Source of the DNA: Thermoplasmata archaeon
GTDB taxonomy: Archaea > Thermoplasmatota > Thermoplasmata > Thermoplasmatales > Thermoplasmataceae
Assembly (NCBI GenBank): GCA_021794355.1
Contig: JAJYRA010000011.1
Location: forward strand, 1-35,780
Length of the DNA stretch: 35,780 nt
Direction: 5' to 3'
A program made the translations under genes and the position numbers. Numbering within the stretch: the stretch's first letter is position 1; each line of letters starts with the position of its first letter. The notes beneath the pieces were generated by a model that worked only from the letters and a program-made list of their open reading frames with translations, had not been told where the DNA came from and did no database searches. Positions 2,652 through 34,086 of this stretch are shown here, piece after piece.

Positions 2652-4187
2652 ATGGACAATGGGAATTCAGACAATAACTTTGAGAAGAAATTATGGAAAT
2701 CAGCTGACAAGATGCGAAGCAACATGGATGCTGCAGAATACAAGCACGTCGTCCTTGGACTTATTTTCCTGAAATACATATCAGACTCATTCAACGAAAT
2801 ACACACAATACTGGAGAATCAGAAGGAGGACTTTTCGGATTCTGAGGATAGGGATGAATACATATCAAGAAATGTATTCTGGGTTCCTCCTGATGCAAGA
2901 TGGGATTATCTGCAGAGAAATGCAAAGCAGCCTAAGATAGGCAGGATGATTGACGATGCAATGGAGGTGATCGAAAGGGACAACTCGTCATTGAAAGGTG
3001 TCTTGCTCACAAACTATTCAAGGCCATCCCTGGATGTACAGAGGCTTGGAGAACTTATCGACCTCATAGGGGGTATAACATTTGGAAATGAACAGAAGGG
3101 GAGGGACCTCCTTGGAAAGGTGTACGAATATTTCCTCGGGCAGTTCGCAGATGCAGAAGGCAAGAAGGGTGGGCAGTTCTATACGCCAAAATCTATAGTT
3201 CAACTGCTTGTTGAGATGATAGAACCGTACAAGGGGAGGGTGTTTGATCCGTGCTGCGGTTCCGGTGGCATGTTTGTGCAGAGTGAAAAATTCATTGAAG
3301 CACACCAGGGAAAGCTGGATGATATACACATATTCGGCCAGGAATCAAACCAGACAACATGGAAACTGTGCAAGATGAACCTTGCAATCCGAAACATAGA
3401 TTCGGATGAGGTTAAATGGAATAACGAAGGGAGTTTCCTCCATGATCTCCATAGGGATCTCAAGGCAGACTTTATCCTTGCCAATCCCCCTTTCAATGAT
3501 TCTGACTGGAAGGGGGATCTAATCAGGGAGGATGTGAGATGGAAATACGGAGTACCGCCCACAGGAAACGCAAACTTCGCATGGGTTCAGCATTTCATTC
3601 ATCATCTTTCACCCACAGGAATAACAGGCTTTGTTCTTGCCAATGGATCAATGAGTTCCAACACGTCCAATGAGGGTGTCATAAGGAAGAACATAATCGA
3701 AGCTGATCTGGTGGACTGCATGGTTGCACTTCCTCCACAACTCTTCTTCAATACAGGCATTCCCGCATGTTTATGGTTTGTTACAAGGGATAAGAAAAAC
3801 AATAAGTTCAGAGACAGGAGAGGTGAAATACTTTTCATAGACTCAAGGAACACAGGAACCATGATAGACAGGAGACATAGAATCCTAACGGATGAGGACA
3901 CAAGGAAGATATCCGATACTTACCATATGTGGAGGGGAGAAAAGGAAGGTTATGAAGACATCAAAGGATTCTGCAGATCCGTTGATCTGGAGGAGGTAAG
4001 GCAACAGAACTGGGTTCTCACACCTGGTAGATATGTCGGTTCTGAAGAAAAGGAAGATGACATGGAGGAATTTGAGGAGAAGATGGAAAAACTAACCTCA
4101 GAGCTTGCAAAGCAGATGGAAGAAGGGCAGAGGCTTGATACAGAGATAAGGAAGAGTCTGGAGAAGATTGGATTTGGCCTATTCTGA
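2652..4187 (+). CDS. hsdM: Type I restriction-modification system, DNA methyltransferase subunit HsdM
   Basis: This 511-residue protein is the expected length for the M subunit of type I systems, which methylates adenine at the site chosen by HsdS. An N-terminal helical domain (about 8-150) is followed by [10 protein letters not shown] (174-183). The SAM-binding motif [11 protein letters not shown] is at 199-208 and the N6-adenine methylase motif NPPF at 278-281. The C-terminus (about 470-505) is charged and probably coiled-coil. It is the first gene of an operon with hsdS (20-bp overlap) and hsdR (immediately adjacent to hsdS). ATG 2652 follows a TATA-like box at leaderless spacing. All visible catalytic motifs are intact, so it should be active. 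Confidence 0.97.
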
Positions 4188-5469
4188 AGACACCAAGAAT
4201 ACTGGAGACCGTAAGAAGATATCTGAATTATGCAGAATTCATTTAGGTGGTACTCCTAAGACAGGTAAAAAGGAGTTTTGGGGTGGTGACATAAAGTGGG
4301 CAACAGCAAAAGATGTAGCCAATCTCCAAGGAAGGTGTCTGACAGAAACTGAGAGGAGAATTACAGAAAAAGGTGTAAACGGAAGCAATGCCAAAGTATT
4401 CCCTGAAGGGACTATCGTAATAACGGCCCGTGGGACCGTCGGCAAATTAGCGATCTTGGGAGAACCAATGTCTTTCAATCAAACGTGCTATGGACTGATT
4501 CCCATTCCAGCAATAGACAAAATGTATGTCTTTTATGCATTAAAAAATGGAATCTCAAAAATTGACGAATTGTCTTATGGAACCGTATTCCAAACCATAA
4601 CAATGAAAACATTCGACGAGTTAGAAATCCGTGCGCCATCCTTAGAACAACAACGAAGAGTATCAAAAATCCTCGCAGACCTCGACTCCAAAATAGAACT
4701 CAACCAGCAGATGAACAAGACCCTCGAATCCATTGCCCAGGCCATATTCAAGCACTGGTTCATAAATTTTGAATTTCCGGATGAAAATGGTCAGCCTTAT
4801 AAGTCAAGTGGGGGAGAAATGGTTGATTCTGAACTTGGGGAGATACCAAAGGGGTGGGAAGTTTTAACTCTTGGAAATTTACTAAGTTCCATTGAATCGG
4901 GCAAAAGACCAAAGGGTGGCATTGACCCAGACTTGAAATTTGGAATACCAAGTATTGGAGCAGAAAATATCAGTGGACTTGGATATTATGATTACTCCAA
5001 GACAAAATTCGTTTCATTTGAATATTTTGAAGGGATGAAACAAGGAATAGTTAAAGATAAAGATGTCTTACTCTACAAGGACGGCGCACAAATAGGTAGA
5101 AAAACAATGTTTGGATGTGGTTTTCCTTTCGATAAATGCTGCGTTAATGAGCATGTTTTCATTTTGAGAACTAATGAAAAAATAAATCAGTTTTTCTTAT
5201 TTTTATGGCTGAATCAAGACGAAGTGACAAGAAATATACAGAATCTCAATTCCAATTCAGCTCAACCGGGTTTGAATAGGGATTCCATCAAAACACTTCA
5301 AGTCTTTGTCCCCGATAAAGATGTATTAAACAATTTTGAAGGGGTGGTTTCTAAGTTGATTGGAAAGATATTCTTAAATAGTTTAAATTCGAGAGAACTT
5401 TCCTTGATTCGAGACCTTCTTCTCCCTAAACTCATGACAGGAAGAATAAGAGTCCCCCTGGAGGAATAA
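4168..5469 (+). CDS. hsdS: Type I restriction-modification system, specificity subunit HsdS
   Basis: This 433-residue protein has the two-half architecture of HsdS, which recognises the bipartite DNA target and bridges M and R subunits. The first target-recognition domain (TRD) spans about 15-157. A central conserved helix ([15 protein letters not shown], from 159, to HWF at 196-198) follows, then the second TRD (about 222-390), which starts after LGEIPKGW. A weaker C-terminal helical repeat ends near [10 protein letters not shown]. It starts at TTG 4168 inside hsdM; no in-frame ATG occurs before residue 101, and a GGAG sits 4 bases upstream, so coupling to hsdM is likely. The TRDs are visibly more A/T-rich than the central helix, which fits domain exchange. 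Confidence 0.95.
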
Positions 5470-8400
5470 ATGTCAAAGAGGATTTCAGAATCAGATTTGG
5501 AAGAGCTTTTCCTCGATCTTCTATCTAAAACCGGATATTCTGTCAAGTTCGGTCCGGACATTTCTCCCGGTGGTCCCAATAAGGAGAGGGAATATTCTGA
5601 GGTAGTCCTTCGTGATCGCCTGATTCAGAGGCTGCAGATAATAAACCCTGATATCCCAAGAGAAGCCATTGGTGATGCATACAGAACCATAGTTAAATCG
5701 GAATCTCAGGATATCATATCCGACAACCATTCCTTTCACAATCTTCTGGTGAATGGCATCAACGTTCAGTACAAGAAGAAAGATGGGTCCATAAAGCATG
5801 ACAAGGTTTTCATGGTAGATTTCAACAATATGGATAACAATGAGTTTCTTGCAGTGAACCAGTTCACAATCATGGAGGATAAACACGAGAGGAGGCCGGA
5901 TATCGTCCTATTTGTAAATGGCATTCCACTTGTGCTTATCGAACTTAAGAATCCAGCAGACGAGAATGCAACCATATGGTCAGCATACAGCCAGATTGAA
6001 ACATACAAAAATGAGATTAAATCAATATTCAGGTTCAATGAGATTGTCATAATAAGTGATGGTCTCGAAACCCGATCAGGCACAATAACATCACCTAAGG
6101 AAAGGTTCGCAACATGGAGAACAGTTGACTATGAGAGACCAGATGACATGACGAATCTTGAGATAAGCATCAATGGTATGTTATCTCCTCCTGTCCTTAT
6201 CGACTTAGTGAGAAATTTCATCGTATTTGAATCTGAACATTCCAACGGTTCAGTAAAGATAGCAAAGAAGCTTGCAGCATACCAGCAATATAATGCAACC
6301 AACAAGGCTATAATATCTACAGTGACTGCAATGGATTCCGATCACAAGGCAGGTATTGTGTGGCACACACAGGGATCGGGGAAAAGCCTTACAATGGCAT
6401 TTTATTCAGGTAAACTTGTCCTTGAACCTAAGATGGGCAATCCCACAATTATTGTTCTCACCGATAGAAATGATCTGGATGATCAGCTGTTCCAGACATT
6501 CACAAGATGTCAGGAACTGTTGAGACAGGAACCCAAGCAGGCAGAATCCAGAGATGTACTAAAGTCATTGATAAATGTGGCCTCAGGTGGTATAATATTC
6601 ACCACAATACAGAAATTCCTTCCTGAGGATGGATCAAATGAATTTTCTCTTCTCTCTGAAAGGAAGAACGTTGTAGTAATAGCAGATGAGGCACATCGCA
6701 GTCAATATGGTTTCCGTGCTGACATATCAAAGGAAAATGCGAATCTGAAATACGGTTATGCCAAATACCTCAGGGATGCAATACCCAATGCCACATTCAT
6801 CGGCTTTACCGGAACGCCAATAGAGAAGGAGGATAGGAGTACACCACAGGTCTTTGGTGAATACGTTGACATATATGACGTTCAGCAGGCTGTTGAGGAC
6901 GGATCAACAGTACGCATATATTATGAGAGCAGGCTTGCAAAGATTGATCTCAAGCCTGAGGAAAGACCCCATCTGGATCAGGAATTCGAGGAGATCACCG
7001 AAGGAGAGGAGATATCCACCAGAGAGAAGCTTAAGACAAAGTGGGCCAGAGTTGAAAGTGTTGTGGGAAGCGAGAGCCGTATCAAAACAATTGCCAACGA
7101 TATTGTGCAGCACTGGGAACAGCGTTCTTCTGTTCTGGAAGGAAAGGCCATGATCGTAACCATGAGCAGGCGTATAGCAATAGAACTCCATGACGAGATT
7201 GTAAAACTAAGACCTGAATGGTATAATAAAGAAGACGATAGTGGTAAAATAAAGGTCATAATGACGGGTTCTGCAGCCGACGGAGCAAAATGGCAGGAAC
7301 ACATCCGGAACAGGGAGAGAAGGAGGAGGATCGGAGAAAGGATGAAAGACCCCAACGATTCCCTCAAGATAGTTATAGTGAGAGATATGTGGCTAACGGG
7401 GTTTGATGCGCCGAGTCTTCACACCATGTACCTGGATAAGCCCATGCAGGGGCACACGTTGATGCAAGCAATCGCAAGGGTCAACAGGGTCTTCATGGAC
7501 AAGGACGGTGGCCTGATCGTGGACTATCTTGGACTTGCTTTTGAACTGAAGAAAGCTTTATCCCAGTACACTGAAGGTGATAGAAAAGAAACTGGTATAC
7601 CACTAGAACAGGCTATCGCCCTCATGGAGGAGAAATTCGAGATTGTCCAGGATATGTTCGGTGCGTTTGAATACAGAAGGTTCTTCATATCAGACACAAA
7701 GGAAAGGCTGAGGATAATGGAAAACGCCATGGATCATATCCTCGGATTGGACGATGGAAAGGAGAGATACATGAAGAATGTTACCGAACTAACCAAGGCC
7801 TTTGCCCTTGTTATCCCTGATCAGTCAGCAATGGTCATAAGGGATGATGTGGGTTTCTTCCAGGCCGTGAGATCTGCACTCATAAAGAACACGGAATCAA
7901 GGAAAGTTGGTGGTTCGTCGTCTGAGACAGCAATACAGCAGATACTTTCCAAGGCTCTCGTATCGGATCGTGTCATAGACATATTCGCCGCCGCAGGATT
8001 AAACAAGCCTGACATATCCATACTATCCGATGAGTTCCTTGCTGAGGTGAAGGACATGCCCCAGAAGAACCTTGCATTTGAGATGCTGAAGAAACTACTC
8101 AACGATCAGATCAGGATCAGGATGAAGAAGAACCTTGTTCAGGCAAGATCATTTCTGGAGATGCTGGAGAATGCCATAAGGCAGTATACAAACAAAAGCA
8201 TAGAAACGGCCCAGGTAATTCAGGAATTACTGGATCTTGCAAAGAGGATCAGGGAAGAACAGAACAGGGGAAAGGATCTTGGAATGAAAGAAGAGGAGAT
8301 TGCATTCTACGATGCGCTTGCAGATAATGAGAGTGCGAAACAGGTGCTTGGCGATGACACCCTGAAAATAATTGCAAGGGAACTTCTTGAAATGGTCAAG

Positions 8401-8568
8401 AGAAATGTGACCATTGACTGGGCAGAAAGGGAAAATGTGCAGGCAAAACTGCGGTTGATGGTGAAGAAGATCCTGAGGAAATATGGATATCCGCCGGACA
8501 AGCAGGAGAAAGCCACCTTGACCGTACTGGAACAGGCAAAACTACTTGGATATGAGTGGGTTAATTAG
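5470..8568 (+). CDS. hsdR: Type I restriction-modification system, endonuclease/translocase subunit HsdR
   Basis: This 1032-residue protein is the R subunit, which uses ATP to pump DNA and cut it away from unmethylated sites. The nuclease motif is D144 ... ELK (158-160) in [20 protein letters not shown]. Walker A is QGSGKS (301-306), DEAH is at 406-409 ([11 protein letters not shown]) and the helicase motif GFTGTP at 445-450. Another helicase motif region contains [21 protein letters not shown]. The C-terminal third is helical and serves complex assembly in this family. ATG 5470 directly follows the hsdS stop, and GGAGG in the hsdS 3' end (5461-5465) provides an SD. No frameshift or motif loss is visible, so the whole operon appears functional. 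Confidence 0.97.
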
Positions 8569-8876: not shown

Positions 8877-10424
8877 TTAGGTACATGTAATTGACTGAAT
8901 AGCCTTCAGGATGTCATTCTGCCGTTTGGTTCTCTCCCTTTCGATCATTTTGCCATCAATCTCCATTATCTGCAGCTTCTCCAGTTCAAGAAATACCTTG
9001 TCCATGGAATATTTCTTGTTCAATCCCGATTCTGTCAACATCCTTCTCATGGACAATCTCACTATCAATGAAAGATAGAGAATGAAAATAAGTCCCCTTA
9101 CGGTGGTTGGCGTTCTCTCCCTCAGGGGGAAGATATCCAGATCTGATTTCATGATTTCAAATGCTTTCTCCACCCGATCCTTGTCACGGTAAAGATCAAG
9201 GCATTCAATGGGCGTATATTCACCACGGTATACAAGCAGGAAACGCCCCATACGATTTTCCCTTTGAGATATTGCATTGTTTCTTGCCTGTGTGTGATAA
9301 GTTCCATCCTTTGCCGTTGTTCTTATGTACTTGTAATATTCCCCCTCCACGGATCGAATCTGGGCAATCTGTGTGGATCTCTTCTCCTTTGGAACAGTCT
9401 TTTCCATTGCATCCATGGCATCCCTGATGTGCCGATGGAAGTTTGATCTTTCCCTCATTTCCAGATCCAGATCATGATAGAGGTATCCATTCAGGGAAAG
9501 ATCGCCAATGGAGAAATCCACATGCATGGCAAATATGGGTTTGCCATTGTAGACGATTGTGTTGTCTGCAGAATCCAGCCTCTTCCCATTGGCAGAGAAC
9601 ACATGCTTGATCTCATTCCTGGAGTATGTTGCTGAGATTATGTATCCATGATCCTGAAGGAGCCTGAGGTTGTCCAGCGAAAAGAAACCACGGTCAAGGA
9701 TGATTGCCACTTCCGGTACAATGTTACTGATCCTTTTCAGCGTTATCTCAAGGGTGGAAACATCCACAATGCTCCCAGGATATATCTCGAATAGGATTGG
9801 CAGTGACCTTTTCCTTTCCATAACAAGTGAAAGGTTGATTTCCGGGAGATCTGCATGATCCTTTGCATGGCCATACTCGAACATATTGCTGGTGGAATAT
9901 GATGCAATGGTCGTTATATCATATAAGAGTGAAGATTCCGGCTTCATGAGTGATGAAAATGCAGAGAAAAACCTGTCCGGGATGGCACTGTCTCCAATGT
10001 CGTTAAGCAAACGTGAGATGTGCTGTGAAGAAACATCACATGGGTATTCCTTTGCGAGATATGTTCCATCATACCATGTGCGAACGAGATCCACGGGAAG
10101 TGATCTTATTGCACGTGCAGCAGTGAATGCAATGATGGTGTTTCTGTCTTCTTTGTTGAAGAAAGAATCCAGGGTGCTCTCGATCCCCATTTCCTTTATG
10201 ATCCTCAAAACCGGTATTAATGGACCATAAACAAAAATATTCTTTGGAAGATGTGTCCTCACCTTTTCTATGCCATTTTCCTTCTGGACTCCAAGGTATT
10301 TGCTGTGATACCTGATCTTCTTCTTCTCCTTGTCCCAGTAAGGGGTCATCTCATAGAAATATTCCTTGCCACTGATCTCTTTTCTTCGGGTGTATGTGTT
10401 CAATATGTACCTAAATAGGTACAT
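8877..10424 (-). CDS. DDE transposase of IS4/IS1634 superfamily
   Basis: From ATG 10424 the protein has 515 residues. An in-frame TTG at 10475 would add 17 residues with no visible conserved feature, so I prefer the ATG. Catalytic D169 lies in LLYDITTIASYS, D244 in AIILDRGFFS and E419 in the Y(4)R(1)E signature YRDKDRVEKAFEIMK. The reading frame is complete and its TAA is formed by the IS terminal repeat. It differs from the transposase at the left window edge, so two distinct IS types are present. A perfect palindrome at 10404-10425, made of IS-end sequence, covers the start codon and may let the transposase repress itself. Confidence 0.93.
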   Translation of the reverse strand: MYLFRYILNTYTRRKEISGKEYFYEMTPYWDKEKKKIRYHSKYLGVQKENGIEKVRTHLPKNIFVYGPLIPVLRIIKEMGIESTLDSFFNKEDRNTIIAFTAARAIRSLPVDLVRTWYDGTYLAKEYPCDVSSQHISRLLNDIGDSAIPDRFFSAFSSLMKPESSLLYDITTIASYSTSNMFEYGHAKDHADLPEINLSLVMERKRSLPILFEIYPGSIVDVSTLEITLKRISNIVPEVAIILDRGFFSLDNLRLLQDHGYIISATYSRNEIKHVFSANGKRLDSADNTIVYNGKPIFAMHVDFSIGDLSLNGYLYHDLDLEMRERSNFHRHIRDAMDAMEKTVPKEKRSTQIAQIRSVEGEYYKYIRTTAKDGTYHTQARNNAISQRENRMGRFLLVYRGEYTPIECLDLYRDKDRVEKAFEIMKSDLDIFPLRERTPTTVRGLIFILYLSLIVRLSMRRMLTESGLNKKYSMDKVFLELEKLQIMEIDGKMIERERTKRQNDILKAIQSITCT

Positions 10425-10425
10425 A
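10404..10425. repeat. 22-bp palindrome built from two IS-end sequences over the transposase start
   Basis: TATGTACCTA, two bases AA, then TAGGTACATA: 10-bp perfect arms. Each arm equals the terminal repeat of the surrounding IS. The right arm extended to 12 bp (10416-10427) is also the exact complement of 10490-10501 at the right end. Thus an 86-bp segment (10416-10501) carries its own 12-bp inverted repeats inside the IS right end. Confidence 0.7.
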
Positions 10426-10585
10426 GTATTTACATGTTTCGCTTCGGTAAAACGTGTATTATCCGATGTCTTCAAATGGTTTCTGGGGAACTATGTACCT
10501 AAAAGGAGAGGATCTGGTATTTAGGAATTTTCAGACTTATTATTCATGTAAAGTCACGAAAATAAGAATTGGTTGATCGATAGAA

Positions 10586-13363
10586 TTATAAAAGACTCAT
10601 CATATTAGCATTGAACTGCTCGTCGAATAGCTTTGACATGTGCTCAATAGAATCCTCCCTACCAAAATTTAAATTTTCTTCCTCCTTCATAAATGACTTC
10701 TTTAAGATGCTCAAGAGTAATTCAGATGTTGAAACAATTTCTTTCAGAGGTTTATTTTTCGATGTATAACCCTTTATTTTGTTTACCACCTCAGAAATCT
10801 TCCTATTAAATTCAATTGAACCTCCGACTAAATAATTCCACTGTATTACATTCCTCAAGACCAGTGCAGATGGTCTAGAACCTCCGTCTTTATACGCGAA
10901 GAGTAAACCTATAGAAGACTTTTCCTTTAATATTGATTTTATGCCTGTAATACTATTCCATGCTAGAAATTGTATGTATTTTTCTGGCTGCACAATGAGA
11001 CCCGATACGTTTCTAAGTCTTAAAGCGAGACCTGAATCGGTCACTATAAATTCACAATTGTAAACATGATCTCCACAAATTAAGTGGAAACTTTCAAAGT
11101 AGTTTTCTGGCGTCAATTCTGATAAATTTTGAAAGGCTAAATTTGCTACCTCTCTTTCTTTATTTTTTAGAAATTTTAGGATATTTTTTTTATTCCCAGT
11201 TTTTGAGTAGAAATAAATGATCAAATTCAAAATATTCTCATTACTGCTTGTTTCGTACTTTTCCAGTTCTGATTCGTTTGAAAGAAAGTACTCTTCCGAG
11301 AGCTCCATACCAACGTACTTGAGTTCTTCTCTACCACTTTGGAGAAACTCTTGTCCAGTCTCTAAACCAAGGGCTTTCAGTGAGGGATTCAACCACGGTA
11401 GGGCAATTATTGTTGATGATGGTGCATACCACCATTCATCGAAAATGTCACCGCTTTCAAATAGTATTCTCTTCAGCTTCCGGAAAGAAATTTCCCCTCC
11501 GCAATACCTTATTACTCCAGAGTAAGTTGCCAGGCTCTTTCCAAGATCCCCGCTGCTTTCCATTTTTCTCCAAATTTTATTTTCTAGCCTTTTTCTATCC
11601 AATCGCCTGAGACTTCTTAGATAAGACATGTCTCCTTCTAAACTGACTTCTTTGTCCTCTTGGGAAACGAACAATTCAAATATTGTATCAAAAGAGCTTA
11701 GGTCGCCAAGTTTAGAAAGGGAGTCAGAAGCCTGAATTTTCATATCTTCCGTATCAATATTACTCATCTGATCATCATAATTGAGGAAGGGTCGTATCTC
11801 GTTAATCATACAGGAATCCTTGAGATCCCCTAGTGTTTTAATTATTAGATATTTTAAGTAATCATCGTGGCTTTCATGAAGTACACTAATAAGTTTGTCC
11901 GTTACGCCTTCAGGTTTGAGAGTTGACATTGCATTTAAGGTGAATTTTAATTCATTCGTTACGGATGTGAATCCACCGGAACTCCCTTTATTCCTTTCGT
12001 AGATTAAATCAAAGAATTCCATTATATGATAGCCCATATCTTTCAATTCGAGCGTTGCAGAAACTTCGAACATGATCTTCAAAACATTATCCCATTGTGA
12101 GATATGCTTGGAGAGCTCACCTAATTTTTTTTCTATTTCTAGGACTCCATTGCGGGAAGCATTGGACCCCCGTCCTCTTGTATTTATTAGTATCTCATCT
12201 CTCTCGGCTTTAAGTTTATTACTCTCAATTATCATATCAGAATAATTTTTGAATATCCTATTGCCGTAAAGATCTGTTAATATTTCTAAAATCAATGGCC
12301 TATTGTCGAAGAATTCCATCGATTCCACTATTAGTTCAATATTTTCATAATACGTTTCTGTTTTCAGCTTTTCCTGAATAGACTGCAACATTTTAGTGTC
12401 ATATGGCTTAGTTCCTAGCGCTAAATATTCTAATGCAATCTTTCTTATCGTATGACTTTCATCGTTTAAACACACTTTTAAGAGGTCTTCTGACTTAGTG
12501 ATATATTTGTTAGGATATTCTATTAACCAATCAACCAAAAGTCTGTAACCTTTTTCCCTTAAACCTTCACCCAGACGTGGAAGTAAGGCTTCAATCAATT
12601 CGAAGTTATTTATCAATTTCAATTCCATTGAGTAACTTAAACCCTTTTCGATCTCATCCGGCACAAAGGACTGTAGAAATTTTTCAACAATGTAGGACTT
12701 TGAATTCTCAAGTTCCGGAACAACGGGTCCAGTATTCCAATAACCTGACGGAGGTTTAATAGCTCCTATAACTCTAATGAATTTTGAAAATTCCATTTCT
12801 GTTATCGAGTTCTTTGATTCCTTACCAAACAGAGATAATGCCTTAATAAGTTCATGATTAAGAGGGACTACAATTTCCCACCATTCCAAGTCTTTGTTAT
12901 CTAAGACTATCTCCGAATTTCTTGATGTTACTATCCACGAATTAAGATTTTTTCTTATTTTATGATTTACCTCATTAGTTATTTCTGTTGCCCCTTGGTT
13001 GAAAACATTCTGCGAAAACCATTTTACGTATTCCTCTCTCTGCCTATGTATCTGATTAAATGGGTTCTCACCCTGCTTTTTCATCAACTTTATTTTTCCA
13101 AATTTATCCTCAGCATCCCAAGATCCGTTACGCTTGGGGTAAATCCTATTTTTATAATCTTTTAATTCTAATATTATAGTATTACCTCTGAAATACAGGA
13201 TAGCATCTATCTGAGGGATATCTTTGACTCTCGGATCAATTATAATGTATTGCCTTTCATTTCCATACCTATTAAAATAAGTGTTCAATAGATCTATAAG
13301 CTCCTTTGCCTGCCTCTTTTCGTGCGAATATTCTAAATCATTACCTCTGTAAACTTCAAGCAT
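10586..13363 (-). CDS. NERD-domain protein with HEAT-like helical body and possible PH-like tail
   Basis: This 925-residue protein has an N-terminal NERD domain (about 14-125). This PD-(D/E)xK nuclease-like fold shows its usual signature: D53 in PQIDAIL, the ELK triad (66-68) in IILELKDYKNRI, and NPFNQ at 100-104. Residues about 240-760 are helical and leucine-rich with repeated amphipathic pairs, like HEAT/ARM repeats (for example PRLGEGLREKGYRLLVDWLI). Residues about 768-865 are beta-rich, with a tryptophan-containing strand pattern (IQFLAWNSITGIKSI) that resembles a bacterial PH-like domain; this last part is uncertain. ATG 13363 has a strong SD (GGAGG, complement of 13373-13377) and overlaps the 3' end of the radical SAM frame by 8 bases. 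The gene is A/T-rich compared with the core genes, suggesting transfer. Function unknown; a DNA-targeting defence role is inferred. Confidence 0.8.
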   Translation of the reverse strand: MLEVYRGNDLEYSHEKRQAKELIDLLNTYFNRYGNERQYIIIDPRVKDIPQIDAILYFRGNTIILELKDYKNRIYPKRNGSWDAEDKFGKIKLMKKQGENPFNQIHRQREEYVKWFSQNVFNQGATEITNEVNHKIRKNLNSWIVTSRNSEIVLDNKDLEWWEIVVPLNHELIKALSLFGKESKNSITEMEFSKFIRVIGAIKPPSGYWNTGPVVPELENSKSYIVEKFLQSFVPDEIEKGLSYSMELKLINNFELIEALLPRLGEGLREKGYRLLVDWLIEYPNKYITKSEDLLKVCLNDESHTIRKIALEYLALGTKPYDTKMLQSIQEKLKTETYYENIELIVESMEFFDNRPLILEILTDLYGNRIFKNYSDMIIESNKLKAERDEILINTRGRGSNASRNGVLEIEKKLGELSKHISQWDNVLKIMFEVSATLELKDMGYHIMEFFDLIYERNKGSSGGFTSVTNELKFTLNAMSTLKPEGVTDKLISVLHESHDDYLKYLIIKTLGDLKDSCMINEIRPFLNYDDQMSNIDTEDMKIQASDSLSKLGDLSSFDTIFELFVSQEDKEVSLEGDMSYLRSLRRLDRKRLENKIWRKMESSGDLGKSLATYSGVIRYCGGEISFRKLKRILFESGDIFDEWWYAPSSTIIALPWLNPSLKALGLETGQEFLQSGREELKYVGMELSEEYFLSNESELEKYETSSNENILNLIIYFYSKTGNKKNILKFLKNKEREVANLAFQNLSELTPENYFESFHLICGDHVYNCEFIVTDSGLALRLRNVSGLIVQPEKYIQFLAWNSITGIKSILKEKSSIGLLFAYKDGGSRPSALVLRNVIQWNYLVGGSIEFNRKISEVVNKIKGYTSKNKPLKEIVSTSELLLSILKKSFMKEEENLNFGREDSIEHMSKLFDEQFNANMMSLL

Positions 13364-13598
13364 AATTCTTTACCTCCGTTTCATAATTCCTGAGACGTTT
13401 AACAGCGATCGAAATTGAATGGGATGAATCCTCCATCTTCTTCTGAATTCCTTTTAGAAAGAACACTTCATTTTTATTCATCCATCTTGTTGCAATTACC
13501 TCTCTAGGAAATATTGGGGAAAACTGTATTCCCCCTTCATTGTTTTCGAAGCTGCTTGCTACATCAGTGCCGCGAAGAAGTGAGAGCGGGAAAATGCG
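13356..13598 (-). pseudogene. 3' continuation of the radical SAM reading frame after an in-frame amber codon
   Basis: The frame of the upstream radical SAM gene stays open for 80 codons after TAG 13601-13599. It begins RIFPLSLLRGT, which is the normal continuation of B12-type radical SAM proteins of this family (an FPL..LRGT segment after the last barrel strand). It ends at TGA 13358-13356, 8 bases into the NERD gene. Apart from the single TAG the reading frame is undamaged. The substitution is explained by one base change, for example TTG to TAG. So the full gene would be 14702-13356 (448 residues). Confidence 0.7.
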
Positions 13599-14702
13599 CT
13601 ATTTCTTGCATCCCATTTTGCTCAGTGAAAATACATCAGCAGTGAATGACTTCATTGACTGATTTGGCAAACCATATATGAGATGTGTTTCAAATCTAAC
13701 TTTTTTTGATACCAATGTTTCTATGGATTCTCGAACCTTCTGATGGTTGTTAACTCTCTTGATCGACCTCTGAACCTCAGTATCTAATGTCTGCACACCA
13801 CATTCCAGTTTTACGTCCATTGAAGCGAGGATGGTTATAATTGTTGAATCCAAGTGTTCAAATCTGGACTGTATACTAAATTCAACATCCGGAGTGATTG
13901 AAGCCATAAGCCTTAGAATCACAATCGACCTGTTTCTGTTTAGGAAGAATACTGGATCTAATACCGCGACTTTCCTTATATTCATTTCTTTAATTTTCCT
14001 CAATTCAAATGTCACAGTCTTAATGTCACTTTCAACTACGGTTCCGTTTGGGGATTTAAAAGCGCAAAATGTGCATCTGAATACACAGCCTCTTTGTGTC
14101 TGCCATCTTAAGAAATTACGTCCGAGCAGGGACATTTCAAGTTGCGGTTTGAAAAATGGAGAAGATTCAATTCCGCTAGAAGGAATTGCCAAGGTCTGAC
14201 CGAGCTTTTCTCTTTTCGTATAGATTCCTGGAAATGAAGGAGTTCTCTTTTCTTTAACAGATCTTACTATTTCAGCAAATGCAGATTCTCCATATCCCTT
14301 AACAAAATAGTCTGCAGTAGGAAATTCTTCTTTTAGTTCATTTCCTCCATACGTTATTTCAGGCCCTCCTAGGACGACAAGAGGTTTGCATCCAAATTCT
14401 TTTAATGAATAGAGGATCTTACCAACCGCTTCATTATTCCAAGCATACACCCCAATCCCAAGGATGTCTGGCATTATTGTCATTATTTGATGAATCGCAT
14501 CGCTTAAGTTATCTCTTACATCATATTCCACTAGTTCCACTTCTATTTTAGCAAAAGCCTCATCCACATTTTTAAGTTTGGAATAAATGTACCCCATTCC
14601 CAAAGGAGTCCTAGGGTCTTTTCTCCTATACCAATTAAACGATAATAGGACAATTTTCATTTTGCTCGTATTCATATCTTTTGTTTTAATTATGGAAGAC
14701 AT
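13599..14702 (-). CDS. B12-binding-type radical SAM protein (truncated by in-frame TAG)
   Basis: The frame gives 367 residues up to TAG. Residues about 15-150 form a cobalamin-binding-like Rossmann domain ending in the typical VVLGGPEITYGG (109-120), although the classical DxHxxG motif is not evident. The radical SAM domain follows, with the [4Fe-4S] cysteine triad C206, C210, C213 (GCVFRCTFC). Later barrel motifs include LECGVQTLD and LIYGLPNQS. Family members cleave SAM to make a 5'-deoxyadenosyl radical; the substrate here is unknown. The conserved sequence runs on in frame past the TAG, so this is either a recent nonsense mutant or a readthrough gene. ATG 14702 is used here; ATGs at 14675 and 14660 are alternatives, the last giving MKIVLLSF. 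It is the first gene of a coupled pair with the NERD protein. Confidence 0.75.
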   Translation of the reverse strand: MSSIIKTKDMNTSKMKIVLLSFNWYRRKDPRTPLGMGYIYSKLKNVDEAFAKIEVELVEYDVRDNLSDAIHQIMTIMPDILGIGVYAWNNEAVGKILYSLKEFGCKPLVVLGGPEITYGGNELKEEFPTADYFVKGYGESAFAEIVRSVKEKRTPSFPGIYTKREKLGQTLAIPSSGIESSPFFKPQLEMSLLGRNFLRWQTQRGCVFRCTFCAFKSPNGTVVESDIKTVTFELRKIKEMNIRKVAVLDPVFFLNRNRSIVILRLMASITPDVEFSIQSRFEHLDSTIITILASMDVKLECGVQTLDTEVQRSIKRVNNHQKVRESIETLVSKKVRFETHLIYGLPNQSMKSFTADVFSLSKMGCKK

Positions 14703-15242: not shown

Positions 15243-15572
15243 CTATTTCTTTGTCTTTTTCTTCACGCCAGTGGATTTTGAACTCTTATTGACGCCTGAC
15301 CCCGTGGAGTTTTTAACTGATTTCACTGCTGGTTTAGTTTCTATTCCCAATTGTTTTTTCAGTTCATTTATAGTTCTTACTCCCTTAATCTTTTCCGAAG
15401 CTTCCGGTTCACCTATGTACAAAAGCCAGCTGGATAGGTGCCCTTCCTTCAAATGGTATTCCACACATAAAGAATCTATCTCTGATAATCTTTTAATTTC
15501 CCTTTTCAATTCTTTAAGATCCGATGCTGAACCAATTTCTATTCCGTAACTCTTAAAATAGAACTTATCCAT
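15243..15572 (-). CDS. Small DUF5752-like protein with Lys/Ser/Thr-rich tail
   Basis: From ATG 15572 the product has 109 residues. An ATG at 15665 opens a longer frame, but its extra 31 residues are hydrophobic and lie over the promoter. Residues 1-75 show the pattern of DUF5752-type domains: FYFKSYGIEI, a run of LKELKREIK, then EYHLKEGHLSSWLLYIGE with HL and W conserved. The C-terminal 35 residues are low complexity (Ser, Thr, Lys, ending KKKTKK), typical of a disordered nucleic-acid- or membrane-contacting tail. A TATA-like ACTTTTAAG (complement of about 15595-15606) is at leaderless distance. It is divergent from the DUF72 gene. Function unknown. Confidence 0.65.
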   Translation of the reverse strand: MDKFYFKSYGIEIGSASDLKELKREIKRLSEIDSLCVEYHLKEGHLSSWLLYIGEPEASEKIKGVRTINELKKQLGIETKPAVKSVKNSTGSGVNKSSKSTGVKKKTKK

Positions 15573-15692
15573 GATATCAATATAATACAATATAGACTTA
15601 AAAGTTACGGACTGTAGGTCGAGTATATAGCAAAGGATTAGGAAAGGAAAATTCAAAATCCTCATATAAATAGCAGGAGGAGATTAACTTAT

Positions 15693-16508
15693 ATGGGTTC
15701 TAAATCAGGCTTTTTTGTGGGATGTTCAGGATGGAGTTATGGAAAGTGGAAAGGTCCATTTTATCCCATAGGCACAAAAATGAAAGATATGCTACACCTG
15801 TATTCAGAAACCTTTAGTGCTGTGGAAATAGATTCAACTTTTTACGGGATTCCCTCCAGTGAAACGGTCAAGAATTGGTATGCCTCAACTGTAAAAGAAT
15901 TCGTTTGTTGCCCGAAACTGCCACGTTTAATAACCCATGATAAGAAACTGAGGCATTGCGAATCTGACCTAAGTGGTTTCATAGAAAGAATTCAGGGTCT
16001 CAAGGAAAAACTTGGACCCATCTTAATACAGCTTCCACCGTGGATGACCTATGATCACCACTTTAATGATCTCAATGAATTTGTGAGCATTCTCAATGAT
16101 GGTAATTTATTTGCAATGGAATTCAGAGACATGTCATGGTTCAGGGAAGATGTATTAAGAATCCTGAGGGAAAGGAATATAATTACTGTGTGGGCAGATA
16201 TCCCTTATGTAAAACCACCACCTTGGATTACGGGAAATTCAATATACCTCAGGCTGGTTGGAGATAGAAGTATAGGGGAAGATAAATTTGGAATCGTTGC
16301 TTTGGATAAAGGTGAAAATATAGTATACTGGGCAAACTTGTTGAGAAGAAGTGAGTTCGAGAAGGCTTACATATTCGCAAATAACCATTTCGAAGGGTTC
16401 TCACCCCTTACTGCCAATAAGATAATGGAGAGTCTTGCTTTGGAAATACCCAAATGGCCAAATTCCATGGGCGGAAATAATAACTCCGTGCAGAAAACCC
16501 TATTCTAA
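15693..16508 (+). CDS. DUF72 family protein (YecE-like)
   Basis: This 271-residue protein is close to the usual length of the family, which has a TIM-barrel-like fold and unknown activity. The opening FVGCSGWSYGKWKGPFYP is the hallmark DUF72 start. It is followed by FSAVEIDSTFYGIPS, then LGPILIQLPPW and FAMEFRDMSWF, and near the end YIFANNHFEGFSP (the conserved NNH..G segment). ATG 15693 has a strong SD, GGAGGAG at 15676-15682, 10 bases upstream, and an A/T box (GTATATAG, near 15620-15630) further up. A second TATA-like ATATAAATAG lies closer. It is monocistronic and divergent from the DUF5752-like gene. Confidence 0.93.
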   Translation: MGSKSGFFVGCSGWSYGKWKGPFYPIGTKMKDMLHLYSETFSAVEIDSTFYGIPSSETVKNWYASTVKEFVCCPKLPRLITHDKKLRHCESDLSGFIERIQGLKEKLGPILIQLPPWMTYDHHFNDLNEFVSILNDGNLFAMEFRDMSWFREDVLRILRERNIITVWADIPYVKPPPWITGNSIYLRLVGDRSIGEDKFGIVALDKGENIVYWANLLRRSEFEKAYIFANNHFEGFSPLTANKIMESLALEIPKWPNSMGGNNNSVQKTLF

Positions 16509-16643
16509 TTGGGTCTTTAGATGATCTTTTTCTAAGCTATAATATTCCCAATCACCATTCTTTGGAAAAATAGATGCCGTGAAACTGTTGAATTTTTCAA
16601 TCATAAAATAATATTAATTTCACAAATTTAACATTTAGAGTCT

Positions 16644-16655
16644 AAAATTATATAG
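16644..16655 (+). promoter_or_regulatory. TATA-like element of the VAT gene
   Basis: AAAATTATATAG is 21-32 bases upstream of ATG 16676, the normal leaderless spacing. This argues against the upstream in-frame GTG at 16655, which overlaps the box. Confidence 0.5.
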
Positions 16656-16675
16656 TGATTTGTGCTTATAGTAAT

Positions 16676-18919
16676 ATGTCAGGTTCGAATAATGATGGTA
16701 TTACACTAAGGGTCGCAGAAGCAAATGCTACAGATCCGGGCATGTCCAGAGTGAGGCTGGATGAGGATTCCAGATTTCAGTTAAACGTTGAAATCGGGGA
16801 TGTGGTAGAATTAGAGAAAAACAAAAAAACAGTGGGAAGGGTTTTCAGGTCAAGACCTGAAGATGAAAACAAGACGATCGTGAGAATCGACAGCGTTATG
16901 CGAAACAACTGCGGCGCTTCCATTGGCGATAAGGTAAAGGTAAGAAAGGTAAAAACAGAGGTAGCAGCTAGGGTAGTTCTTGCACCCATTATAAGAAAGG
17001 AACAGAGACTGAAGTTTGGAGAAGGAATAGATGATTTTGTCCAGAGGGCTCTCATAAGAAGACCGATGCTTGAACAGGATAATATAAGTGTTCCCGGTCT
17101 CACACTGGCCGGCCATTCAGGCTTACTCTTCAAAGTTGTTAAGACAATGCCTCCCAAGGTACCAATAGAAATTGGTGAGACCACAAAAATAGAAATACGT
17201 GAGGAGCCCGCCTCTGAGGTCCTTGAGGATGTTTCAAGAATAAGTTATGAGGATATCGGTGGTCTTTCGGATCAGCTGGGAAAGGTAAGGGAAATTATAG
17301 AACTACCACTGAAGCATCCGGAACTCTTCGAAAGACTGGGTATCAGGCCTCCAAAGGGGGTCCTACTTTTTGGCCCTCCGGGTACTGGCAAAACTTTAAT
17401 TGCAAGGGCCGTGGCCAATGAATCTGGAGCCAACTTCTTCTCCATAAATGGTCCAGAGATAATGAGCAAATATTATGGCCAGAGCGAGCAGAAACTCAGG
17501 GAAATATTCACGAATGCTGAAGAGAAGGAACCTTCCATAATTTTCATTGATGAGATAGATTCCATTGCACCCAAGAGGGAGGAGGTTCAGGGAGAGGTTG
17601 AAAGGAGAGTCGTTGCGCAACTTCTCACCCTGATGGATGGATTGAAGGAAAGAGGCCATGTTATTGTCATTGGAGCCACAAACAGGATAGATGCAGTGGA
17701 TCCGGCACTCAGAAGACCCGGCAGGTTCGACAGGGAGATAAATATCGGCGTTCCTGACAAGAAGGGAAGAAAGGAAATTCTTACCATACACTCAAGAGCA
17801 ATGCCACTGAACATGGACGAGGATTCAAAATCAGCGTTCCTGGATGAAATTGCAGACGTAACTTACGGCTTTGTGGGTGCCGATCTTGCTGCACTGGCCA
17901 GGGAATCTGCAATGAATGCCCTGAGAAGGTATCTTCCGGAGATCGATCTGGATAAACCCATACCAACGGATATTCTGGAGAAGATGGCCGTCATCGAGGA
18001 TGATTTCAGGGATGCCCTGAAATTAATAGAACCAAGCAGTCTCAGGGAGGTCATGGCTGAAATCCCTGATATTCACTGGGATGATATAGGTGGAATGGAG
18101 GATGTGAAGAGGGAGTTAAGAGAAAGTGTTGAACTGCCTCTCCTGAAACCTGAGGTTTTCAAGAAACTGGGTATCCGTGCTCCAAAGGGATTCCTTCTCT
18201 ACGGTCCTCCAGGTGTGGGAAAAACACTTCTTGCCAAGGCTGTGGCCAATGAAAGCAATGCAAACTTCATATCGGTGAAGGGTCCGGAGGTCCTGAGCAA
18301 ATGGGTTGGGGAAAGTGAAAAGGCGGTAAGGGAAATATTCAAGAAAGCAAAACAGGTTGCCCCTTCCATAGTCTTCCTTGATGAGATAGATTCTATTGCA
18401 CCCAGAAGGGGAGGCGGAGGCGATTCAGGAGTTACAGAAAGAATTGTTAACCAGTTGCTCACATCCATGGATGGTGTGGAGGTGCTTCAGGGCGTTGTCG
18501 TTATAGGTGCAACAAACAGGCCGGATATTCTTGACAGTGCTCTCATAAGGGCCGGCAGGTTTGATAAGATGATATATATTCCACCACCGGACAAGGAAGC
18601 AAGACTTAAAATCTTGAAGGTTCACACCAGAAACATGCCTCTCAACCAGGACATCAACCTTCAGAAGATAGCTGAAATAACCGACGGATATGTGGGAGCA
18701 GATCTGGAGAATCTGTGCCGTGAAGCAGGAATGATGGCATACAGGAATGATCCGGAGGCATCCCTGGTATCAAATGGGGATTTCACGAGGGCTATGAAGG
18801 TGATCAAGCCATCGGTCGATCAGGAAGTGATCAATTTCTATGAAAATATGGCCAAGAATATTGGGAAGAGTGTGAAGGAAAGAAGAAAACAGGTAGAGGA
18901 GTCGGGACTCTACAATTAA
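16676..18919 (+). CDS. vat: VAT, archaeal Cdc48/p97-type AAA ATPase
   Basis: This 747-residue hexameric ATPase unfolds proteins and feeds them to the proteasome or other partners in the cytosol. The N-domain (1-185) begins [20 protein letters not shown], as in Thermoplasma VAT. It contains the double-psi barrel (about 1-95) and the beta-clam half. Ring D1 has Walker A GPPGTGKT (233-240) and Walker B IFIDEID (289-295). Ring D2 has Walker A GPPGVGKT (510-517) and Walker B VFLDEID (566-572). Both arginine-finger regions (RRPGRFDR and RAGRFDK) are present. I chose ATG 16676 over an in-frame GTG at 16655 because the latter lies in the TATA box. The protein is intact and close to the 745 residues I recall for the Thermoplasma protein. 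Confidence 0.97.
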
Positions 18920-33164: not shown

Positions 33165-34086
33165 CGGAAGTTGATTTTTCAAATTTCAATGGACAGGAGA
33201 TGAAAGTAAAACGGATTCACGGATCTATGGATCCTAAGAGACCGACCCTCCCTTACAGGTATATTATTTTGATGAGAACACAGTGATAACGTGGCAGAGC
33301 AAGGATTTATCATTTGAAGCTCCGTTCATGTTCCTTTTCATTGGGAATAATAAAGCAATCCTTTTCGATACCGGTGCCACAAATGACATGATAAGATTTC
33401 CGCTGAGAAAGACTGTTGATGCAATTTTGGAGAAGTGGCTCTCAAAGAATAAGAGAGAGAACTATGAACTTATAGTTGCCCATACCCATGAACACAATGA
33501 TCATACTTCTGGAGACACTCAATTTCTTCATAGAGCGAATACTAAAGTAATTGCAAAGGACCTCGATTCCGTTGGTTCTTTCTTCGGAATTCAAAAGGGG
33601 GCGCTTGGCACGGGCAAATGCGACTTAGGGGGAAGGGTTCTGATAATCTTGCCAATACCTAGGCACGATCCTGGGTCTATTTCAATTTAGGATCGATACA
33701 CAGGAATTCTTTTGACTGGCGATACAGTCTACCCAGGAAGATTGTATATTTCTGACTTCCCTGCGTTTCTAGGGAATCTACGGAGATTAGTGTCATTTTG
33801 CAGGGAGAATCCAGTGAAATACATTATGGGATGCCATATGGAGATGCCCCAAACCCCAGGGGAAGGCTATCCAGCGACTTCAAGATACCAACCTGACGAA
33901 CTTCCACTAGAAATGACCGTTGACCAGTTGAAAACGGTCGAGGAGGCAGCCATAAGGGTAGAGAGCAAGCCAGGACCGCATGTATTTGATAATTTTGCCA
34001 TTTACAATGGACCTTGTTATAGTGCAATGATCAAGCAATTATTCAAGGCATATTTTTCTAACCTGAAACGCAGAACTGCCGTGTGA
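33161..34086 (+). pseudogene. Metallo-beta-lactamase-fold hydrolase, broken
   Basis: The gene starts at ATG 33161 and runs about 25 codons, then shifts frame near 33,230-33,250. The next frame reads DPPLQVYYFDENTVI and continues through FEAPFMFLFIGNNKAILFDT to the metal motif HTHEHNDH (about 33,482-33,505). An in-frame TAG at 33688-33690 interrupts SISI*DRYTGILLTGD, where relatives have Tyr. The rest (LLTGDTVYPGRLY, MGCHMEMPQTPG with a further His ligand) is normal to TGA 34086. One frameshift and one nonsense codon imply inactivation. Substrate unknown; it belongs to the broad MBL hydrolase superfamily. Confidence 0.75.

What the first reader, a model, noticed from the sequence alone, without database searches (positions are those of the whole stretch)
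10586..14702. Coupled radical SAM + NERD-HEAT gene pair: candidate undescribed system
A cobalamin-type radical SAM gene and a 925-residue NERD nuclease-like protein with a helical body are arranged head to tail. The radical SAM frame ends 8 bases inside the NERD gene (ATGCTTGA), and a strong SD for the NERD gene lies within the upstream frame. They share an A/T-rich base use and sit between an IS and the restriction operon, as defence genes often do. NERD domains are nuclease-like, whereas a radical enzyme would modify something, so a modify-and-cut pair is conceivable. I know of no described system with this composition, but I cannot search for one.
Basis: partly seen in the sequence, partly recalled or inferred. 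Interest (0 to 1): 0.75.

Follow-up and report, generated by a model that had tools for sequence, protein, structure and literature searches.

The report
Broken copy of archaeal nuclease cassette
In an acid-loving archaeon, a cobalamin-type radical enzyme gene and a large nuclease gene overlap end to start, recur as a unit beside restriction genes in related archaea, and look like an undescribed two-gene anti-virus cassette, though in this genome the radical enzyme gene carries a premature stop.

Summary
TAG is an ordinary stop in this genome and no pyrrolysine machinery was found, so this copy is probably broken (or an assembly error).

The pair itself is conserved. In all 117 genomes of the order, every full-length rSAM of this family (4/4) lies directly upstream of the NERD-HEAT nuclease with a 4-8 nt overlap. 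A fifth nuclease overlaps a different cobalamin-type rSAM. The pair is incongruent with the core genome (moves between genera as a unit) and sits beside type I restriction or HerA/methylase genes.

The rSAM matches PADLOC candidate PDC-M51A (5e-83), whose listed partner PDC-M51B looks like a thymidylate/viperin-associated kinase, not a nuclease. More distant M51A-type rSAMs adjoin a NYN RNase or a CHAT protease. I read the rSAM as a shared activating module and NERD-HEAT as one of several degradative effectors. Context supports a defence role; the mechanism is inferred. A restriction-like 'modify-and-cut' is less likely, because intact NERD-HEAT persists without a working rSAM.

The parts
13356..14702 (-). 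Cobalamin-type radical SAM gene (PADLOC PDC-M51A family), 448 codons if read through; interrupted by an in-frame TAG
   Evidence: B12-binding + Radical_SAM; PDC-M51A 5.2e-83; CxxxCxxC at C206/C210/C213; 82% identical to an intact copy in G071.
13599..13601 (-). Premature in-frame TAG (codon 368); CTA (Leu) in the closest relative
   Evidence: falls in a predicted strand at residues 367-372; dN/dS 0.18 both before and after it.
10586..13363 (-). NERD-HEAT protein, 925 aa: PD-(D/E)xK-type nuclease domain (about 1-120), HEAT-like solenoid (about 223-750), beta-rich then helical C-terminus
   Evidence: (D53, E66, K68 invariant).
13356..13363 (-). 8-nt overlap ATGCTTGA between rSAM stop and NERD start; SD GGAGGT just upstream
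   Evidence: overlaps of 8, 7, 4 and 4 nt in G071, G052, G050, G032.
2652..8568 (+). Type I restriction-modification operon hsdM (2652-4187), hsdS (4168-5469), hsdR (5470-8568); defence neighbour
   Evidence: HsdM/HsdR 74/75% identical to those directly beside the pair in G052.
8877..10475 (-). IS transposase (DDE_Tnp_1) between the RM operon and the pair
15243..18919 (.). Right border: small ORF (15243-15665, -), DUF72 (15693-16508, +) and CDC48 (16655-18919, +), syntenic with sister genomes that lack the pair here
   Evidence: loci L055, L056.

Best explanation
It is a mobile two-gene defence cassette: a cobalamin-type radical SAM enzyme (PDC-M51A family) plus a NERD-HEAT nuclease effector, translated as a coupled pair. 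Most likely the rSAM is the activating half: it makes a modified small molecule (possibly a nucleotide) or modifies the effector itself, which licenses the NERD-HEAT nuclease, with the solenoid as sensor or scaffold, to cut invading or cellular DNA. The same rSAM family is coupled elsewhere to other degradative effectors (NYN RNase-like, perhaps a CHAT protease). In this genome the rSAM gene carries a premature stop, so the cassette is probably inactive here. Shown: the pairing, overlaps, conserved catalytic residues, defence neighbourhood, incongruence with the core genome as a unit, the stop codon. Inferred: defence function, direction of control, substrate, nuclease activity.
For: Pairing: 4/4 full-length rSAMs in 117 genomes of the order lie directly upstream of NERD-HEAT, with 8, 8, 7 and 4 nt overlaps; a fifth NERD-HEAT (G032) overlaps a different B12-rSAM by 4 nt. 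Unit of transfer: aRF1 identity to own genome is 94% (G052), 81% (G050), 73% (G071), but the pair is nearest G071 (rSAM 82%, NERD 69%) and remote in congeners (50-52% and 26-31%). Defence context: type I RM beside the pair here and in G052; HerA + DNA methylases in G050; related rSAM-NYN in G560 in an island with a mad8-like HerA, AbiEii-like, UvrD-nuclease, D12 methylase and DpdB-like genes. Effector swapping: rSAM overlapping a NYN gene in G560, rSAM after a CHAT protein in G397. rSAM fold: closest to TokK, CysS, AprD4, TsrM, MgmA. Nucleotide hint: the PDC-M51B model hits thymidylate kinases, which also hit VakA. Activator rather than antidote: NERD-HEAT is intact here under constraint (dN/dS 0.25) although the rSAM is interrupted, and G062 keeps NERD-HEAT with no such rSAM.
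Against: No functional data exist. Only four pairs of this exact composition were found, all in one order. Neighbourhood counts are small and two contigs (G071, G032) end near the pair. The interrupted rSAM may be very recent or an assembly error, which weakens the activator argument. G062's NERD-HEAT is itself damaged at its C-terminus. The CHAT link rests on one locus with an intervening gene. A B12-binding domain does not prove cobalamin use (own knowledge of AprD4-type enzymes). Structure models rest on 3-4 sequences with low confidence for the nuclease part.
Confidence: 0.45

Rival explanations
1. Modify-and-cut (restriction-like): the rSAM places a mark on host DNA or RNA and NERD-HEAT cleaves unmarked nucleic acid.
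For: The two parts are a modifying enzyme fold and a nuclease fold, tightly coupled, near a restriction operon.
Against: NERD-HEAT persists intact where the rSAM is interrupted (own) or absent (G062). The same rSAM family adjoins a NYN gene and a CHAT gene, for which a DNA mark makes little sense. No DNA-binding domain was found in the rSAM.
Confidence: 0.12
2. Toxin-antitoxin-like control: the rSAM restrains NERD-HEAT by modifying it or supplying an inhibitor.
For: Overlapping genes with the rSAM first, as many antitoxins are placed; partner swapping among degradative effectors.
Against: Interrupted rSAM with intact NERD-HEAT in this genome; NERD-HEAT without the rSAM in G062.
Confidence: 0.12
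3. Viperin-like chemistry: the rSAM itself is the antiviral effector making an altered nucleotide; NERD-HEAT is a sensor or a second, independent effector.
For: PDC-M51B, PADLOC's partner for this rSAM family, is thymidylate-kinase-like and its hits resemble viperin-associated kinase VakA.
Against: No kinase next to the pair in own, G050 or G052, nor on the short G071 contig. Closest folds are C-methyltransferases and AprD4; viperins come much lower.
Confidence: 0.15
4. Non-defence function: a metabolic or protein-maturation pair that happens to sit in islands.
For: B12-rSAM relatives on plasmids sit among housekeeping genes where annotation exists.
Against: Those are generic B12-rSAM relatives at about 22-27% identity. 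This subfamily is patchy, incongruent with the core genome and beside RM or HerA/methylase genes.
Confidence: 0.15

Closest known systems
PADLOC candidate system PDC-M51 (PDC-M51A rSAM + PDC-M51B kinase-like)
   Same: The rSAM matches PDC-M51A over residues 14-384 at 5e-83.
   Different: No PDC-M51B beside the pair; the partner is NERD-HEAT. PDC-M51B model hits in these genomes are thymidylate kinases elsewhere.
PADLOC candidate PDC-M16A (NERD-containing)
   Same: N-terminal about 120 residues of the NERD protein match (3e-8).
   Different: Only about 116 of 917 model positions match; the body is unrelated or too diverged.
Mokosh type I / Nhi-like (listed with PF08378 NERD in PMC10952713)
   Same: NERD domain in a defence protein.
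   Different: No helicase or PLD-type partner here; an rSAM instead.
Prokaryotic viperins (pVip, VakA)
   Same: Radical SAM in defence, sometimes with a nucleotide kinase.
   Different: pVip hit is at noise level (0.007, one homologue); this rSAM has a B12-type domain and methyltransferase-like fold neighbours.
Cobalamin rSAM methylases TokK, CysS, MgmA; diol dehydratase AprD4
   Same: Fold and sequence relatives.
   Different: 14-21% identity; biosynthetic or MCR-modifying enzymes, no nuclease partner known to me.

Membership tests
Cobalamin-type radical SAM enzymes | CxxxCxxC cluster motif in a Radical_SAM domain | tested here: met
   Pfam 1.9e-15; C206, C210, C213 invariant.
Cobalamin-type radical SAM enzymes | N-terminal B12-binding domain | tested here: met
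   PF02310 2.4e-9, above cutoff; actual cobalamin binding not testable.
Cobalamin-type radical SAM enzymes | Complete open reading frame in this genome | tested here: not met
   TAG at codon 368; intact in G071, G050, G052.
PADLOC PDC-M51 | PDC-M51A rSAM present | tested here: met
   5.2e-83.
PADLOC PDC-M51 | PDC-M51B partner adjacent | tested here: not met
   PDC-M51B hits lie on other contigs; those examined are thymidylate kinases.
NERD nucleases | NERD domain with D-ExK catalytic residues | tested here: met
   PF08378 1.1e-6; D53, E66, K68 invariant; activity not testable.
Viperin (pVip) | Viperin-type rSAM | tested here: not met
   No pVip hit for the own protein; 0.007 for one homologue.
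Anti-phage defence system | Protection against phage or plasmid | not testable with these tools
   Needs experiment.
Anti-phage defence system | Association with known defence genes | tested here: met
   RM beside the pair in own and G052, HerA/methylases in G050; other two contigs too short. Small numbers, no formal enrichment test.

The most novel reading that the evidence does not exclude
A family of archaeal immune cassettes in which one cobalamin-type radical SAM module makes a previously unknown activating molecule or protein modification that switches on interchangeable effectors: a NERD-HEAT DNase, a NYN RNase or a CHAT protease.
Probability: 0.25. Interest if true: 0.88.

Novelty: new variant of a known kind. 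Interest (0 to 1): 0.58.

Why it matters
If confirmed, it would add cobalamin-type radical chemistry to prokaryotic immunity, in which viperin is the radical SAM example I know of, and would help explain an unvalidated database candidate (PDC-M51A). The apparent effector swapping makes a clear question testable: does one rSAM make a signal or mark that several different effectors share? Thermoplasmatota have a low prevalence of CRISPR-Cas (PMC12988326), so what they use instead is of interest.

Tried and rejected
Pyrrolysine or other recoding of the TAG: rejected as unlikely. No PylS above cutoff; 54 of 292 well-scoring frame ends in 732 kb of this genome are TAG; no excess of mid-gene TAG; no CTA-anticodon tRNA among 19 found in that 36% of the genome, so a suppressor elsewhere is not excluded.

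Phage or plasmid origin: no relatives of either protein in viral contigs, no NERD-HEAT on plasmids; plasmid and phage B12-rSAM hits are remote (about 21-29% identity), and the two large annotated plasmid neighbourhoods read are housekeeping.

Pfam search of the NERD C-terminus: nothing significant; a PH-like fold is only a guess from its strand order.

Literature for PDC-M51, NERD + radical SAM, and CHAT + radical SAM: nothing in the open-access library; the PDC source preprint (cited as reference 15 of PMC12988326) is not held.

Full report
Observation. The window holds two minus-strand genes: a 925-codon NERD-HEAT gene (13363-10586) and, upstream, a B12-binding/radical SAM gene starting at 14702. 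Read through, the rSAM frame has 448 codons and its TGA overlaps the NERD start by 8 bases (ATGCTTGA, 13363-13356), behind a strong SD GGAGGT. But the frame is not open: TAG at 13601-13599 stops it after 367 residues. Aligned relatives have Leu, Leu and Val at that position, and the closest one has CTA. In the model of an intact homologue the position lies in a strand at residues 367-372, near the end of the barrel (mean pLDDT 66). Codons before and after the stop show equal constraint against G071 (dN/dS 0.18 each; NERD 0.25), so the lesion is recent, or an assembly error.

Is the TAG read through? No PylS exceeds the family cutoff. In 732 kb of the same genome, TAG ends 54 of 292 well-scoring frames, split frames show no excess of TAG, and no CTA-anticodon tRNA is among 19 found. 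Two other genes appear interrupted by TAG (an MBL-fold gene, window 33688; an epimerase-like gene, L085 5402). I treat all three as nonsense changes or assembly errors; a suppressor tRNA in the unsampled part is not excluded.

Neighbourhood. Order: type I hsdM-hsdS-hsdR (2652-8568, +), IS transposase (8877-10475, -), NERD, rSAM, then a small ORF, DUF72, CDC48 and further genes syntenic with two sister genomes. The pair is therefore between the IS and core genes, not between the IS and the restriction operon. Its GC (0.35-0.38) is at the low end of the window's genes.

Relatives. All 117 genomes held of the order were searched. NERD-HEAT occurs in six, the full-length rSAM in four, and all four rSAMs lie directly upstream of NERD-HEAT. 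Overlaps are 8 nt (own, G071), 7 nt (G052) and 4 nt (G050). In G032 a different, diverged B12-rSAM overlaps NERD-HEAT by 4 nt. G062 has NERD-HEAT without such an rSAM, but its C-terminus is disrupted. A second rSAM copy in G071 is a multiply interrupted remnant. NERD residues D53, E66 and K68, and rSAM residues C206, C210 and C213, are invariant. By aRF1 the own genome is closest to G048 and G052 (95, 94%), then G050 (81%) and G071 (73%), yet both genes of the pair are closest to G071 (82%, 69%) and remote in congeners (50-52%, 26-31%). The pair has thus been exchanged or retained as a unit, out of step with the core genome.

Defence context. G052 carries a type I RM operon with 74-75% identical HsdM/HsdR directly beside its own, much diverged pair. 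In G050 the pair follows an Eco57I/mad2-like methylase, with a HerA and another methylase nearby. The G071 and G032 contigs are too short to judge. No formal enrichment test was possible.

Known family. The rSAM matches PADLOC candidate PDC-M51A at 5e-83. Such candidates come from a guilt-by-embedding analysis (preprint cited as reference 15 in PMC12988326) and mostly lack validation. PDC-M51B is a 191-position model whose hits examined in these genomes are thymidylate kinases that also match VakA, which I take to be the viperin-associated kinase model; its identity as a kinase family is inferred from those hits. None lies beside the pair. The wider phylum and class samples gave a few more M51A-type rSAMs: G560, overlapping a NYN-domain gene by 4 nt inside an island with a mad8-like HerA, AbiEii-like, UvrD-nuclease, D12 methylase and DpdB-like genes; G397, after a CHAT-domain protein and a 206-aa protein; G208, no evident partner; G375, cut by the contig end. 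NERD-HEAT gave no plasmid match and neither protein a viral-contig relative.

Structure. The rSAM model's nearest solved folds are TokK, CysS, AprD4, TsrM and MgmA. NERD-HEAT is modelled as an N-terminal nuclease domain (low confidence), a confident helical solenoid at about 223-750 matching HEAT/ARM proteins, and a beta-rich then helical C-terminus.

Mechanism. Shown: coupling, conserved catalytic residues, defence neighbours, incongruence with the core genome as a unit, and the same rSAM family beside other degradative domains. Inferred: the rSAM is the activating or signal-making half and NERD-HEAT the DNA-cutting half. The direction is argued from the intact NERD-HEAT beside an interrupted rSAM and from G062; it is weakened if the stop is an artefact or very recent. 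Restriction-like modification and antidote models predict harm when the rSAM is lost, which is not what is seen. A viperin-like nucleotide product is possible because of PDC-M51B, but no kinase is linked here.

Novelty. The composition rSAM + NERD-HEAT was found neither in PADLOC hits nor in the open-access papers searched. Because one half is already a listed defence candidate, I rate it a new variant of a known kind.

Noticed in passing
window 33283-34086 (+): MBL-fold hydrolase-like gene interrupted by an in-frame TAG at 33688 (...HDPGSISI*DRYTGILLTGDTVY...), a second mid-gene TAG in this window.
   Followed up: partly
L085:5402 (G000 contig 10): NAD-epimerase-like gene interrupted by an in-frame TAG (...GKTVI*PLNADLTHNFTYIDD...).
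   Followed up: partly
L062:7305-9262: PDC-M51A-type rSAM overlapping a NYN-domain RNase-like gene by 4 nt, inside a rich defence island (HerA/mad8-like, AbiEii-like, UvrD-nuclease, D12 methylase, DpdB-like).
   Followed up: yes
L034:963-6675: PDC-M51A rSAM downstream of a 1210-aa CHAT-domain protein and a 206-aa protein of unknown family.
   Followed up: partly
L006:600-4567: NERD-HEAT overlapping by 4 nt a different B12-rSAM with no BLAST similarity to the PDC-M51A type; found in no other genome of the order.
   Followed up: partly
L038:1127-4004: A remote NERD-HEAT relative begins 3 nt after a thymidylate kinase gene that matches PDC-M51B; may be the housekeeping kinase.
   Followed up: no
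L018:5854-12700: Type I RM operon close to the window's (HsdM/R 74-75% identical), with an extra 275-aa gene between hsdM and hsdS, directly beside a much diverged rSAM-NERD pair in another orientation.
   Followed up: partly
L020:2222-2967: Multiply interrupted remnant of a second rSAM copy in G071, with no NERD remnant detected beside it.
   Followed up: partly
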